Assembly: GCF_900163755.1 (NCBI RefSeq)
Contig: NZ_FUKI01000124.1
Location: 1 to 42,966, forward strand
Reading direction: 5' to 3'
Source of the DNA: Crenothrix polyspora
GTDB lineage: Bacteria; Pseudomonadota; Gammaproteobacteria; Methylococcales; Methylomonadaceae
DNA: 42,966 nucleotides
In this document: piece by piece, positions 1-3,299 of the stretch
Layout of the letters: every line of letters starts with the position of its first letter
Position numbering within the stretch: the stretch's first letter is position 1
Program-made: the position numbers and the translations under genes
The notes under the pieces: generated by a model
Databases searched by the model: none
Seen by the model: only the letters and a program-made list of their open reading frames with translations
Told to the model about the DNA's origin: nothing

Positions 1-108
1 AGTGTATCCACTTTATATTACTGATGGCCAATCATCCTTCGATAAACTCAGGACGAACGGTAGTGTGTTTCAAGTTGCTCGACTTATTTCGTAGACGTTC
101 CTTAGCCG

Positions 109-190
109 CATAGGTTGGGTTGCCTTCTTTTCGCAACCCAACACATGAGGCGATAAATGTTGGGTTGGAACAGCATCAACCCAACCTACG
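109..190. repeat. palindromic GTAGGTTGGGTT element, copy 1
   Basis: About 82 bp bounded by inverted ends (left TAGGTTGGGTTG, right CAACCCAACCTACG). Inside are two further inverted copies of the core, CAACCCAAC and GTTGGGTTG, so the element can fold into nested hairpins. The left end carries one mismatch (A110) against the other copies. It is a dispersed, non-coding, MITE- or REP-like repeat; no transposase is nearby. Confidence 0.85.
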
Positions 191-310
191 TAACTAAAAT
201 TTAGTGTATCCACTTTATATTACTGATGGCCAATTATCCTTCGATAAACTCAGGACGAACGGTAGTGTGTTTCAAGTTGCTCGACTTATTTCGTAGACGT
301 TCCTTAGCCG

Positions 311-392
311 CGTAGGTTGGGTTGCCTTCTTTTCGCAACCCAACACATGAGGCGATAAATGTTGGGTTGGAACAGCATCAACCCAACCTACG
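311..392. repeat. palindromic GTAGGTTGGGTT element, copy 2
   Basis: An 82-bp element with perfect 14-bp inverted ends: CGTAGGTTGGGTTG at 311 and its complement ending at 392. It forms the end of the second 202-bp unit. Same internal layout as the copy at 1824-1905. Confidence 0.88.
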
Positions 393-432
393 TAACTAAA
401 ATTTTCGGTTTTTTCCGCACTTTTTAACTGTA

Positions 433-464
433 TAAGTTGGGTTGCAAGCTTTTGTAACCCAACA
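433..464. repeat. partial GTAGGTTGGGTT-type element
   Basis: A short diverged version (TAAGTTGGGTTGC ... GTAACCCAAC) that contains only the first hairpin of the full element. A similar partial copy lies at 1227-1259. Both adjoin the duplicated hicA 3' end. Confidence 0.6.
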
Positions 465-545
465 TTTCAACGGGCTACAGCATCATATTAAGCAACACAA
501 AGGATAGCTCTTACAAATCATTTGGACTCAATCCAGTATGCTTAG
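457..545 (-). pseudogene. duplicated 3' end of hicA (direct repeat, left copy)
   Basis: Bases 457-545 match 1252-1340 with three differences. Read on the minus strand, 545-511 encodes KHTGLSPNDL and a stop, identical to the C-terminus of the HicA toxin at 1306-1524; the rest is the sequence downstream of that gene. At 541-545 the copy stops at CTTAG and joins a GTAGGTTGGGTT element preceded by the same CTTAG, as also seen in the 202-bp repeat. This suggests recombination at short homology. It is a remnant, not a gene. Confidence 0.85.
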
Positions 546-548
546 CCG

Positions 549-671
549 CGTAGGTTGGGTTGCCTGCTGTTTGGCAACCCAACACATGGGCTAAACGTTG
601 GGTTGAAACAATATCAATCCAACACTTGGCGCAATTAAATGTTGGGTTGGAACAGCATCAACCCAACCTAC
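549..671. repeat. palindromic GTAGGTTGGGTT element, expanded copy
   Basis: A longer version of the element (123 bp) with the same inverted ends, CGTAGGTTGGG and CCCAACCTAC. It has an additional internal block containing another TGTTGGGTTG / ATCCAACA pair. It lies immediately downstream of the RelE-type toxin gene on the minus strand and could act as its transcription end, though no T-run is obvious. Confidence 0.8.
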
Positions 672-684
672 TCGCTTTTGAACG

Positions 685-954
685 TTAATCCCGCTTGAGA
701 TCACGGTAAAAATTTTCATGCGGCCCCAATCCAAGCAGCATCAGCAAACTATCAGAATACTCGTAAGCCAGGAGGTAAAGCTGATTGATGCAATCAAATT
801 TATAAACCCATACACCTTTAAGATCACCACGCTTTTCGTCCCCAATAGAGGGCGTTTTTAGGATGGATCGAATAACGTCATCAACAATTTTCCGTTGATT
901 TGGATGTAACTTCCGGTAACTACGCCGAAAAGTGGGTTTTTGTTCAATGCGCAC
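685..954 (-). CDS. RelE/ParE-family type II toxin
   Basis: An 89-residue basic protein resembling RelE/ParE-superfamily toxins. Family members are mostly ribosome-dependent mRNA interferases or gyrase poisons; which activity applies here cannot be read from the sequence. The N-terminal RIEQKPTFRRSYRKLHPNQR and the later DLKGVWVYKF and LLLGLGPHENFYRDLKR segments fit the family's compact fold and C-terminal basic/aromatic residues. The start is GTG at 954, two bases after the antitoxin stop, which is typical translational coupling. It follows the ParD-like antitoxin gene in one transcription unit. The gene lies between two copies of the hicA 3' end. It appears intact. Confidence 0.8.
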   Translation of the reverse strand: MRIEQKPTFRRSYRKLHPNQRKIVDDVIRSILKTPSIGDEKRGDLKGVWVYKFDCINQLYLLAYEYSDSLLMLLGLGPHENFYRDLKRD

Positions 955-956
955 AC

Positions 957-1166
957 CTAGTCACCAAATTCAAATGGCTCGGACTCTTCTTGTCGAGCAA
1001 CCAGCACATCACGCACAAATTCAACCGGCAAGTCTGGATTATCTAAAGAAGCACGTCCAATGCTAGCCCAAAATTCTATTTGTCCTTGTACAGAACGAAA
1101 TTCAGCCTTGGAACGTTGTTTGGCAGCCTCATATAATTGATCATTGATGCGGATGGAAACACTCAT
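957..1166 (-). CDS. ParD-like antitoxin
   Basis: A 69-residue protein starting MSVSIRINDQLYEAAKQRSK. It matches the ParD-like antitoxin family (ribbon-helix-helix-like N-terminus followed by the QGQIEFWASIGRASLDNPDLP segment typical of that family). It should neutralise the downstream RelE-type toxin and repress its own promoter. I chose the ATG at 1166 rather than an upstream codon because AGGGGAG lies at the right spacing before it and the protein then starts exactly like family members. The region upstream holds an inverted TTGTA/TACAA pair (about 1197-1217) that could be an operator. Confidence 0.82.
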   Translation of the reverse strand: MSVSIRINDQLYEAAKQRSKAEFRSVQGQIEFWASIGRASLDNPDLPVEFVRDVLVARQEESEPFEFGD

Positions 1167-1251
1167 AAACACTCCCCTGATGCAATATGCCACAATTGTA
1201 GTACGACCAATTATACAACAGTCGGTTAGGTTGGCTTGCACGCTTTTCGCA

Positions 1252-1340
1252 GCCCAACATCTCAACGGGCTACAGCATCATATTAAACAACACAAAGAAT
1301 AGCTCTTACAAATCATTTGGACTCAATCCAGTATGCTTAG
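1252..1340. repeat. hicA 3'-end direct repeat (right copy)
   Basis: The partner of 457-545. It covers the last 11 codons of hicA plus 54 bp downstream and is followed by a partial GTAGGTTGGG element (1227-1259). Together the two copies bracket the ParD-like/RelE module and one palindromic element, with a repeat-to-repeat distance of 795 bp. Confidence 0.85.
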
Positions 1341-1524
1341 AAATACGAGCAAGCATACGGGATCCAATTTCTTCACCATCGTGGAAGGCGAACACAAAAT
1401 CAGGCCAACCATTCCGCGAAAGGGTACGATGCGACCCAGATTGACGCTTAACTTTCCAACCAATAGCCAGTAGCGCCGCAAGAACACGTTTAGCTTTTAC
1501 CGAAGGCAATGGCTCACGCAGCAA
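1306..1524 (-). CDS. hicA: HicA-family mRNA interferase toxin
   Basis: About 72 residues. HicA toxins are small double-stranded-RNA-binding-fold RNases that cut mRNA. The visible family signature is REPLPSVKAKRVLAALLAIG, then KVKRQSGSHRTLSR, which contains the catalytic His of the conserved GSH motif, and a C-terminal KHTGLSPNDL. No ATG exists at the expected N-terminus; TTG at 1524 (or TTG 1527, CTG 1521) fits best. The gene then overlaps the end of hicB, implying coupled translation. An ATG further upstream (1638) would add about 38 unlikely residues inside hicB. The order antitoxin then toxin is the less usual one for this family. The 3' end is duplicated at 457-545. Confidence 0.82.
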   Translation of the reverse strand: MLREPLPSVKAKRVLAALLAIGWKVKRQSGSHRTLSRNGWPDFVFAFHDGEEIGSRMLARISKHTGLSPNDL

Positions 1525-1720
1525 CAAAATCAATGCAGATTGGCATCGGGAGGCTTTCTTTTGTTTCAATTCGCTCGGCAAGTACGCGAAGCGCCAATAC
1601 CTCAGCTTTGGCCATCGCCTCATTAGCGGTAGCGCCATAAGTAAGTACGCCCGGAATTTCAGGAATCTCCGCTAACCAGCGACCATCATTTTCTTGTTCG
1701 TATTCAATATGAAAATTCAT
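1514..1720 (-). CDS. hicB: HicB-family antitoxin
   Basis: A 68-residue protein, MNFHIEYEQENDGRWLAEIP and onwards, with the HicB partial RNase H-like fold signature: an E-x-D-G-RW-x-AEIPE-x-PGV stretch and a following A-T-x-x-E-A-x-x-x-A-E helix. It should bind and block HicA. The ATG at 1720 is preceded by GGAG; a codon nine residues earlier is possible but has no such signal. It is short and lacks the C-terminal DNA-binding extension of longer HicB proteins, so autoregulation may rely on the complex or be absent. It overlaps hicA by about ten bases. Confidence 0.83.
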   Translation of the reverse strand: MNFHIEYEQENDGRWLAEIPEIPGVLTYGATANEAMAKAEVLALRVLAERIETKESLPMPICIDFVAA

Positions 1721-1823
1721 ATCATCTCCAGATAGGACAACACCCATATTTTACGCTTGCCATCGGAAAATGCATAATGTTGCGTTGAGGCGCGGCCATT
1801 CTCCACTTCTATAACAGCAGCTG

Positions 1824-1905
1824 CGTAGGTTGGGTTGCACGCTTTTCGCAACCCAACACATGAGGCGATAAATGTTGGATTGGAACAGCACCAACCCAAC
1901 CTACG
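1824..1905. repeat. palindromic GTAGGTTGGGTT element, copy upstream of hicBA
   Basis: An 82-bp element with inverted ends CGTAGGTTGGGTTG and CCAACCCAACCTACG and the same internal hairpins as 311-392, with a few substitutions. It lies between the hicBA module and the methyltransferase 3'-end remnant. Confidence 0.88.
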
Positions 1906-1917
1906 TAACTTAACGAG

Positions 1918-1983
1918 TCAGTACGGTTTAACCACCAACATTTCATTACCACCACGCTGAAATTCATAAGCCACACGCCGAAT
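1918..1983 (-). pseudogene. duplicated 3' end of methyltransferase gene (direct repeat, left copy)
   Basis: Bases 1928-1983 match 2626-2681 with two differences over 56 bp. On the minus strand the segment reads RRVAYEFQRGGNEMLVVK in frame, continuing PY and a TGA at 1918-1920. The intact gene ends EMLVVKAL instead. It is a remnant or displaced end of the methyltransferase gene, separated from it by the Phd/RelE module. Confidence 0.85.
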
Positions 1984-1994
1984 TGTACAGAAAA

Positions 1995-2288
1995 TTAAAC
2001 TTTAGCCCTGTTTGCTGCTGTCTTATAAACCTCGTTATTTTCTCTTTTTCCAACAGCAATAACAAAAACAATAATTTCTTGATTATCAACTTCATAAACA
2101 AGCCGATAACCTGCTGAGCGTAGCTTTATTTTGTAAGCGCACTCAAAGTGACTTAATCGATTGGCCTCAATATGGGGATTTTCCAAACACTTTTTCAGCT
2201 TGTTTTTAAATTGTATTTTGATGCCGTTATCCAGTTTGTCTCATTCTTTTTTTGCGCTCAGCAGAAATTTTAATTTATAAGTTATCAA
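1995..2288 (-). pseudogene. RelE-family toxin interrupted by an in-frame TGA
   Basis: The reading frame from a TTG at 2288 gives MITYKLKFLLSAKKE, then TGA (2241-2243), then DKLDNGIKIQFKNKLKKCLE and on to a normal RelE C-terminus containing YKIKLRSAGYRLVYEV and VIAVGKRENNEVYK. In RelE proteins the interrupted position is usually Trp (a KKEWDKL motif), so a single TGG to TGA change explains the stop. The rest of the frame is open for 97 codons and overlaps the antitoxin stop region, as expected for a coupled toxin. The toxin is probably inactive unless translation restarts at an internal codon (TTG at 2186), which would drop the N-terminal helices. The antitoxin remains intact. Confidence 0.85.
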
Positions 2289-2526
2289 GCGTAACTTCAA
2301 TTGCCAAGGGCTTTTCTGCTTGCCTAGCGTTAACTATTTCACCTAATTCATAATCTTCCAATTTACTCAGCAACAATTCATAAACACCCGCAGGAACAAG
2401 ATAAGCGGTAGGCAAATTATGGTTGAGAATGGCAATTACTTCACCATCAGCTTTGTTTAACAAGGCTGTTGGATTTTTCTTTAATTCAGAAATGCTTGCG
2501 CTAAAAGAAGCGAATATTTGTTGCAT
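2275..2526 (-). CDS. Phd/YefM-family antitoxin
   Basis: An 83-residue protein starting MQQIFASFSASISELKKNPT. This is the Phd/YefM N-terminal DNA-binding fold (ISELKKNPTALL, then DGEVIAILNHNLPTAYLVP, then VYELLLSKLEDYEL). It normally binds a RelE-type toxin and represses its own operon. ATG at 2526 is chosen over a TTG four codons upstream because GGGG lies at suitable spacing. Just upstream (about 2537-2560) the heptamer TAAGTGC occurs twice, inside an ATAAG...CTTAT inverted pair, a plausible operator. Its partner toxin gene carries a nonsense codon. Confidence 0.82.
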   Translation of the reverse strand: MQQIFASFSASISELKKNPTALLNKADGEVIAILNHNLPTAYLVPAGVYELLLSKLEDYELGEIVNARQAEKPLAIEVTLDNL

Positions 2527-2536
2527 CTGTAACCCC

Positions 2537-2560
2537 AATAAGTGCCTAACTAAGTGCTTA
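2537..2560 (-). promoter_or_regulatory. possible operator of the Phd/RelE module
   Basis: Two direct copies of TAAGTGC within 20 bp, bounded by an inverted ATAAG/CTTAT pair, directly upstream of the antitoxin start. Phd/YefM antitoxins bind short repeated sites at this position. This is inference from position and repeat only. Confidence 0.35.
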
Positions 2561-2615
2561 TATTAGCCCTTAATTAGAAAAACTCAACTCTGATTTAGAT
2601 ATGCGTAACAACGCA

Positions 2616-3299
2616 TCAGAGAGCCTTAACCACCAGCATTTCATTACCACCGCGCTGAAATTCATAAGCCACACGCCGAATCTCAGCACAGAAGCCCTGT
2701 TTTGCTAGTGCATCCATAATGGCAGCAAGATGAGGGGAAGGTTCGCCAGCCAGCGTAAGTACAGGAAACACCCTGACTTCCTGTGCTACCCGCAACATCT
2801 CCAATAACGCTTGCAGGTGAAACTCAGCGGATAAATGCTCACTGTACAAAAACAAAAAATGCGACGACAAGGCAATATCAAAGCTGCCGCTATCAAAAGG
2901 CAGCAAGGGTAATTCCCCTGCAATATAACGACCTTCATTTTTCCCCGCCGCATAATCTGACAGGAATGCATCCATTGCCAACATGCGAACCCGTCCAAGT
3001 TCATCAACCGACGTAATCGCTGTCCACACAAAATCAGCTTGATTTTTGCGTACTTGGCTCAGCACGGTATCGTAAGTTTCAGTAATGCGACTTTTGATGT
3101 GTACAGCGTCGAAGGCATAAACAGGATCGATGGAAACAACGTGGCCACCACGCGCCGTCAATGCCGCATTGAAACCGGCTGGCCCATCACCACAACCCAG
3201 TATGCGACCTTGCAAATCGGCTTCGGTAAGAGCAAACATGTTGACGTACTCTTGATAAGAACGTCCCCAAGGTACGACTTTATCGAGGGTAAATGCCAT
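2616..3299 (-). CDS. class I SAM-dependent methyltransferase-like protein
   Basis: A 227-residue protein. It has a Rossmann-type SAM site: motif I is RILGCGDGPAGFNAAL at about residues 32-47, with an acidic motif II, VVSIDPVYAF, about 20 residues later. A later segment, LPFDSGSFDIALSSHFLFLY, resembles the motif IV region of class I methyltransferases. The substrate is unknown. The ATG at 3299 begins MAFTLDKVVPWGRSYQEYVNMF, a start common in this family. The protein ends VVKAL, whereas a duplicated copy of its 3' end 698 bp downstream would end VVKPY. No partner gene is obvious. Confidence 0.75.
   Translation of the reverse strand: MAFTLDKVVPWGRSYQEYVNMFALTEADLQGRILGCGDGPAGFNAALTARGGHVVSIDPVYAFDAVHIKSRITETYDTVLSQVRKNQADFVWTAITSVDELGRVRMLAMDAFLSDYAAGKNEGRYIAGELPLLPFDSGSFDIALSSHFLFLYSEHLSAEFHLQALLEMLRVAQEVRVFPVLTLAGEPSPHLAAIMDALAKQGFCAEIRRVAYEFQRGGNEMLVVKAL
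2626..2681. repeat. methyltransferase 3'-end direct repeat (right copy)
   Basis: The partner of 1928-1983 (56 bp, two differences) and part of the intact methyltransferase gene. The two copies bracket the Phd/RelE module with a spacing of 698 bp. Slightly beyond the matching block both sides contain GCCCTGTTT (2005-2013 and 2694-2702), which may mark the recombination point. Confidence 0.85.

What the first reader, a model, noticed from the sequence alone, without database searches (positions are those of the whole stretch)
457..2681. Two toxin-antitoxin modules lie between direct repeats of the neighbouring gene's 3' end
The ParD-like/RelE module is bracketed by 89-bp repeats (457-545 and 1252-1340) that include the end of hicA. 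The Phd/RelE module is bracketed by 56-bp repeats (1928-1983 and 2626-2681) that copy the end of the methyltransferase gene. Repeat-to-repeat distances are similar (795 and 698 bp). In both cases the displaced copy still encodes the C-terminus and a stop, and in the second the two ends differ (VVKPY versus VVKAL). This is what one expects if short TA cassettes enter at gene 3' ends and rebuild them, without any visible recombinase. Duplication plus deletion at short homology (CTTAG at 541-545) is the simpler alternative.
Basis: partly seen in the sequence, partly recalled or inferred. Interest (0 to 1): 0.75.

Follow-up and report, generated by a model that had tools for sequence, protein, structure and literature searches.

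The report
Toxin-antitoxin modules at duplicated gene ends
In this methane-oxidising bacterium and some of its relatives, small toxin-antitoxin gene pairs have repeatedly settled at the end of an ordinary gene, leaving a second copy of that gene's last few dozen bases on their far side, which hints at how such genes spread without a dedicated enzyme of their own.

Summary
In detail: the hicA 3' end (457-545 / 1252-1340) and the methyltransferase 3' end (1928-1983 / 2626-2681) each occur twice with a toxin-antitoxin (TA) module between. G001 (matches Crenothrix polyspora) has one methyltransferase 3' end and no Phd/RelE there; G002 has one hicA 3' end and no ParDE there. In both, the displaced copy is the one joined to the shared downstream flank.

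The layout recurs. By hand I read 14 loci with a displaced gene 3' end: 11 in Crenothrix, 3 in other genera; 13 enclose TA-type genes, one a DUF29-like gene. proA gives a third empty site. At 75% identity or more, 17 of 1049 gene 3' ends in TA-centred DNA pass the filter (some are not TA insertions), against 0 of 408 control ends.

Best reading: TA modules acquired by recombination that duplicates roughly 30-190 bp of target, often a gene's last codons, resembling 'insertion with long target duplication' of restriction-modification systems. Whether both copies come from one allele, or one arrived with incoming DNA, differs between loci and is unresolved. attC-like and REP-like repeats flank other TA modules.

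The parts
2616..3299 (-). methyltransferase-like gene (Methyltransf_11), target of the first insertion
2626..2681 (-). attached copy of the methyltransferase 3' end; the protein ends VVKAL
1928..1983 (-). displaced copy of the methyltransferase 3' end; would end VVKPY
   Evidence: in G002 the displaced copy runs into the flank shared with G001
2275..2526 (-). PhdYeFM antitoxin gene
   Evidence: PF02604, 30.3 bits against a cut-off of 29.8
1995..2285 (-). RelE/ParE toxin gene, broken by a premature stop and an altered start codon (start position approximate); the open part is 1995-2186
1514..1720 (-). HicB-like antitoxin gene
   Evidence: 24.2 bits, below the cut-off of 27
1306..1638 (-). reading frame holding hicA (HicA domain in the C-terminal half; the true start is probably inside the frame), target of the second insertion
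1252..1340 (-). attached copy of the hicA 3' end (35 coding bases with the stop, plus 54 bp beyond)
457..545 (-). displaced copy of the hicA 3' end, joined to the flank that follows hicA in G002
957..1166 (-). ParD_like antitoxin gene
685..954 (-). ParE-like toxin gene
541..545 (.). CTTAG joint between displaced hicA sequence and a REP-like element
1227..1259 (.). REP-like half shared with 433-465: the homologous side of the second insertion
4..105 (-). flank that follows the methyltransferase 3' end in G001 and the displaced copy in G002; second copy at 206-307

Best explanation
Two independent acquisitions of a type II TA module beside an existing gene, each with a long duplication of the target (about 56 and 89 bp). 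Shown: gene, one repeat copy and the flank beyond the displaced copy are contiguous in a same-genus genome that lacks the TA, so the module and the extra copy go together. Shown: the same structure at other genes of the genus and at a few in other genera. Inferred: direction (gain rather than loss by recombination between the copies) and mechanism. I think no dedicated recombinase acts: one end joins by homology (the gene's own 3' end, or a REP-like element at hicA), the other by an illegitimate or ligated joint (CTTAG at hicA), as in homology-facilitated illegitimate recombination or single-crossover integration of a circularised fragment. The duplication lets the module land beside a gene without destroying it; addiction by the toxin may help to keep it.
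For: Empty sites: methyltransferase in G001, hicA in G002, proA on G002 contig C446 against occupied C370 and G000 C116. Recurrence: 14 loci read by hand. Ends with a TA hit within 1 kb: 13 of 251 against 9 of 798 (p 4e-4); at 75% identity or more 12 of 251 against 5 of 798 (p 5e-5), and 17 of 1049 against 0 of 408 control ends (p 0.004). Only TA genes were recognised in the two inserted stretches. REP-to-REP joint and CTTAG joint at hicA.
Against: Each empty site could be a loss by recombination between the repeats. The 17 ends count the methyltransferase event in two genomes and the L107 event from both sides, and include ends that are not TA insertions on reading (L105 7345, L105 11143 a doubtful frame, L134, L138 3805, L187). 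At the looser filter 5 of 408 control ends also pass. L109 and L166 enclose a DUF29-like gene, so cargo is not only TA. A 5' end (sufU-like gene, L115) shows it too. Only hicA has a joint that suggests a mechanism. serB in G001 is followed by hicAB with no displaced copy found.
Confidence: 0.6

Rival explanations
1. The incoming DNA carried its own allele of the neighbouring gene's 3' end: TA modules move between related species attached to the end of a core gene, recombine in that gene, and leave the recipient's own 3' end downstream, as proposed for effector-immunity and Rhs C-terminal displacement.
For: Pooled over 15 rows (14 loci) the copies differ at 73 synonymous of 135 sites, against 36% expected if one copy decayed neutrally and the other was fully constrained (p 2e-5); 78 of 135 at third positions. 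htpG: 9 displaced-specific and 10 attached-specific changes with G001 as outgroup (p 7e-4 under decay), each copy as far from the other as from G001; 999-aa methyltransferase 6 of 6 synonymous. The repeat ends from 25 bp before to 4 bp after the stop at 11 of 14 loci, where homology between species would end. The TA coding windows are 0.91-1.00 identical between G000 and G002, the methyltransferase windows 0.84-0.96.
Against: serB (10:2 and 9:2) and proA (9:2) fit duplication of one allele with later decay; at hicA the two copies share 5 differences from G002; the methyltransferase is inconclusive (3:3 in G002, 2:0 in G000). Coding repeats stay recognisable longer, which may explain part of the clustering at stops. 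Rows are pooled and the methyltransferase is in twice.
Confidence: 0.35
2. Tandem duplication of the whole neighbouring gene, followed by replacement of the second copy's 5' part with a TA module.
For: It would give the same layout with coding-like divergence.
Against: No tandem full copy at the three empty sites; 3' ends with similarity running on upstream of the repeat were filtered out.
Confidence: 0.07
3. REP-like or integron repeats moved the modules and the gene-end repeats are incidental.
For: REP-like elements flank the window's ParDE and TA pairs on contig C99; TA homologues in G005 and G028 lie between attC-like repeats (recognised from memory); a Y1_Tnp gene is in the genome.
Against: The gene-end repeats are low-copy (2 to 5 matches in the sampled DNA) and I see no attC-like sequence in the two window pairs; the methyltransferase joint has no REP at the gene.
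Confidence: 0.08

Closest known systems
Insertion with long target duplication of restriction-modification systems (Nobusato 2000, Furuta 2010; known here only as cited in PMC3874152 and PMC3031569, passages)
   Same: addictive gene pair, flanking direct repeats of variable length in the order of 100 bp, empty site in a relative, no mobile element recognised
   Different: cargo is type II TA; the repeat mostly lies in the last codons of a gene and often ends near its stop
Homology-facilitated illegitimate recombination, and circularisation with single crossing-over (PMC3240628, abstract; proposed for effector-immunity modules in PMC5361080, passages)
   Same: one homologous and one non-homologous joint would give this structure; the old end is pushed downstream, as proposed for effector-immunity and Rhs loci
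   Different: seen here only as scars at unrelated genes; no experiment
TA modules as integron cassettes (PMC2654758, passages)
   Same: small TA units bracketed by direct repeats (G005 L063, G028 L071)
   Different: those repeats look like attC to me; the window's do not

Membership tests
insertion with long target duplication | direct repeats of tens to hundreds of bp flanking the insert | tested here: met
insertion with long target duplication | related genome with a single copy and no insert | tested here: met
   three sites: methyltransferase, hicA, proA; the other loci gave no unbroken match
insertion with long target duplication | both copies derive from one target allele | tested here: inconclusive
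   serB, proA, hicA agree; htpG does not; methyltransferase undecided
homology-facilitated illegitimate recombination | one homologous joint and one joint with short or no homology | tested here: inconclusive
   hicA: REP-to-REP similarity and CTTAG; not resolved at other loci
integron cassette | attC recombination sites at the borders | tested here: not met
   by eye in the two window pairs; attC-like repeats seen in L063 and L071
integron cassette | integron integrase in the genome | not tested
   no search made
type II TA module | toxin and antitoxin of known families, adjacent, same strand | tested here: met
   one toxin broken, HicB below its cut-off
type II TA module | toxicity and neutralisation | not testable with these tools
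   needs a bench test

The most novel reading that the evidence does not exclude
TA modules in this family act as recombinase-free mobile units that travel attached to the 3' end of a neighbouring core gene: the incoming allele replaces the gene's last codons and pushes the recipient's own end downstream, so that 3' ends of many unrelated genes serve as homology docks for addictive modules.
Probability: 0.28. Interest if true: 0.85.

Novelty: new variant of a known kind. Interest (0 to 1): 0.62.

Why it matters
How small chromosomal TA modules spread without a visible mobile element is an open question. A recurring scar, a displaced copy of the neighbour's 3' end, is a signature that can be counted in any genome, dated by its divergence and reproduced by transformation. 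It would also tie TA modules to restriction-modification systems, the other addictive gene pairs said to leave long target duplications.

Tried and rejected
Integron cassette for the window: rejected, no attC-like sequence by eye. REP alone: rejected for the methyltransferase, kept as homologous side for hicA. One fixed cassette-borne end: rejected, homologues of the same modules have other flanks. A near relative of the window's ParDE: in 60 relatives only partial matches of about 56-92 bp in 5 genomes. The 5'-end test gave 14 rows from 961 ends; most are the same repeats seen from a neighbouring frame, one looks real (sufU-like gene, L115). Two repeat pairs round TA genes in L102 lie in no intact gene that I recognise and stay unexplained. 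Short or weak 3'-end hits (L106, L115, L147) were not counted among the 14; L166 (vapC-like gene end, DUF29-like gene between) and L146 were seen and also not counted. Print: searches found no paper on TA modules with this scar in the held library; one search returned no paper at all; Furuta 2010 is not held. In some searches hicA was measured over its 35 coding bases only. Of the ten modelled empty sites only six were searched.
Full report
What is there. The window starts a contig of a 3.92 Mb genome, G000. The same-genus genome G001 matches Crenothrix polyspora RSM_CP2: contig NZ_FUKJ01000196.1 has the same length (10129) and the same place of the match. On the minus strand the window reads: methyltransferase gene (3299-2616), Phd antitoxin and a broken RelE/ParE toxin (2526-1995), displaced methyltransferase 3' end (1983-1928), REP-like element, hicBA (1720-1306), REP-like half, ParD/ParE-like pair (1166-685), REP-like elements, displaced hicA 3' end (545-457), flank.

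Empty sites. In G001 the methyltransferase has one 3' end (VIRCC) and no TA module; after an insert that looks MITE-like to me it is followed by a flank which in G002 follows the displaced copy. G002 carries the same Phd/RelE with both copies (VVKAL attached, VIRYC displaced). For ParDE, G002 is empty: its hicA runs straight into the sequence that in the window follows the displaced copy, window 396-545 matching at 93% over 150 bp, and G002 has no match to the window's ParDE. So in both cases the displaced copy holds the junction shared with the empty genome and the attached copy a private one. A loss by recombination between the copies would leave the same empty site, so the direction is inferred.

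Recurrence in the genus. Searches gave 138 hits of PF05016, PF02604 and PF07927 in G000-G002; 104 regions (833,486 bp) hold 136 of them, and the window's ParDE was added by hand. Of 1049 gene 3' ends, 22 have a displaced copy that is low-copy, without similarity running on upstream, and at least 400 bp away: 13 of 251 ends with a TA hit within 1 kb against 9 of 798 without (p 4e-4); with 1.5 kb, 17 of 320 against 5 of 729. At 75% identity or more, 12 of 251 against 5 of 798 (p 5e-5), 17 ends in all. These 17 hold the methyltransferase event in two genomes and the L107 event from both sides, and also ends that are not TA insertions on reading (L105 7345, L134, L138 3805, L187) or are doubtful frames (L105 11143). 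Control: 20 stretches of G000 not chosen for TA plus window 12001-42966 (430,857 bp), none holding a hit; 5 of 408 ends pass the looser filter (8 rows, three of the ends in one repetitive stretch, L325) and none at 75% identity; 17 of 1049 against 0 of 408 gives p 0.004.

Loci read by hand in Crenothrix: methyltransferase, hicA, serB/hicAB (L196), GNAT/Phd-ParE (L138), 999-aa methyltransferase/HigBA-like and others (L173), DUF433/Phd-RelE and others (L178), htpG/ParDE with two matched stretches of 125 and 46 bp spanning about 185 bp between convergent genes (L107), proA/HigBA-like and another gene (L195), YebC with a partial HicA hit between (L119), 933-aa methyltransferase/BrnTA-like (L130), and L109 with a DUF29-like gene between. 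Family names without a Pfam hit (HigBA, BrnTA, DUF29, DUF433, YebC, serB, proA, htpG, thpR, SDR, GNAT) are recalled from the protein sequence.

A third empty site. A query of gene, displaced copy and flank for six loci found G002 contig C446 matching the whole proA part at 83%, while G002 C370 and G000 C116 are occupied with the same spacing of 1634 bp. For the other five loci no unbroken match was found; serB orthologues in G000 and G001 match gene and repeat only. serB in G001 is followed by hicAB without a displaced copy, and in G000 by a hicB-like frame.

Other genera. Of 40 TA regions in 15 other genomes of the family, picked by me from the list, 3 show a gene 3' end displaced beyond a TA pair: thpR with 95.6% over 68 bp (L274), an SDR gene (L281), a membrane protein gene (L305, 31 bp). 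A fourth, after guaA (L301), is terminator-like at 73% and weak. Other repeats there are REP-like, CRISPR-like, or TA paralogues or gene families. Homologues of the window's own TA modules lie between attC-like repeats in G005 and G028 and between or near dispersed repeats in G019 and G001; for the others looked at no flanking repeat was found.

How it may work. Two models give gene-copy-module-copy-flank. In the first the module inserts and duplicates its target; the copies start identical and the displaced one decays. serB (10 displaced-specific to 2 attached-specific changes, or 9 to 2 with the other outgroup) and proA (9 to 2) fit; at hicA the copies share 5 differences from G002. In the second the incoming DNA brought its own gene end. 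The synonymous excess (73 of 135 against 36% expected, p 2e-5), htpG (9 to 10, p 7e-4 under decay) and the 999-aa methyltransferase (6 of 6 synonymous) fit that better. The methyltransferase is undecided (3 to 3 in G002, 2 to 0 in G000). The repeat ends from 25 bp before to 4 bp after the stop at 11 of 14 loci; hicA and htpG run beyond it and the 999-aa methyltransferase ends 45 bp before. Coding repeats stay recognisable longer, so part of this is bias. At hicA one joint is REP to REP and the other CTTAG. Between G000 and G002 the TA coding windows are 0.91-1.00 identical, with 220 identical columns at the toxin's end, the methyltransferase windows 0.84-0.96; I infer exchange of the module after the lineages parted.

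Known work. Target duplications in the order of 100 bp are described for restriction-modification systems (PMC3874152, passages; PMC3031569, passages); the original papers were not read. A TA review cites that work in a sentence on restriction-modification systems and describes TA cassettes in super-integrons (PMC2654758, passages). Homology-facilitated illegitimate recombination, and circularisation with single crossing-over, are in PMC3240628 (abstract) and are proposed for effector-immunity modules in PMC5361080 (passages). I found no paper on TA modules with this scar in the held library.

Verdict. Real, recurrent, partly explained.

Noticed in passing
window 1-404: 202-bp tandem copy, 99% identical, at the contig start; contains the flank that follows the methyltransferase in G001.
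   Followed up: partly
G000:C41:1-760: The hicBA pair and flank that follow this locus in G001 and G002 begin another contig of the same genome, so the window probably continues there.
   Followed up: no
G000:C99:52590-55152: Cluster of REP-like elements with TA genes between them, about 700-900 bp apart.
   Followed up: partly
G005 L063 1296-2607; G028 L071 2231-2990: TA modules homologous to those of the window lie between attC-like repeats.
   Followed up: no
L166 13340-13780; L109 6548-6988: DUF29-like genes lie at displaced gene ends in the same way as TA modules.
   Followed up: no
G001 and G002, query 1780-1907: A repeat of about 105 bp beside the 999-aa methyltransferase locus has many matches in G001 and one in G002; perhaps a short mobile repeat.
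   Followed up: no
L062 2570-2835: MITE-like insert with inverted ends and a repeated GTTAACACTAA after the G001 methyltransferase.
   Followed up: no
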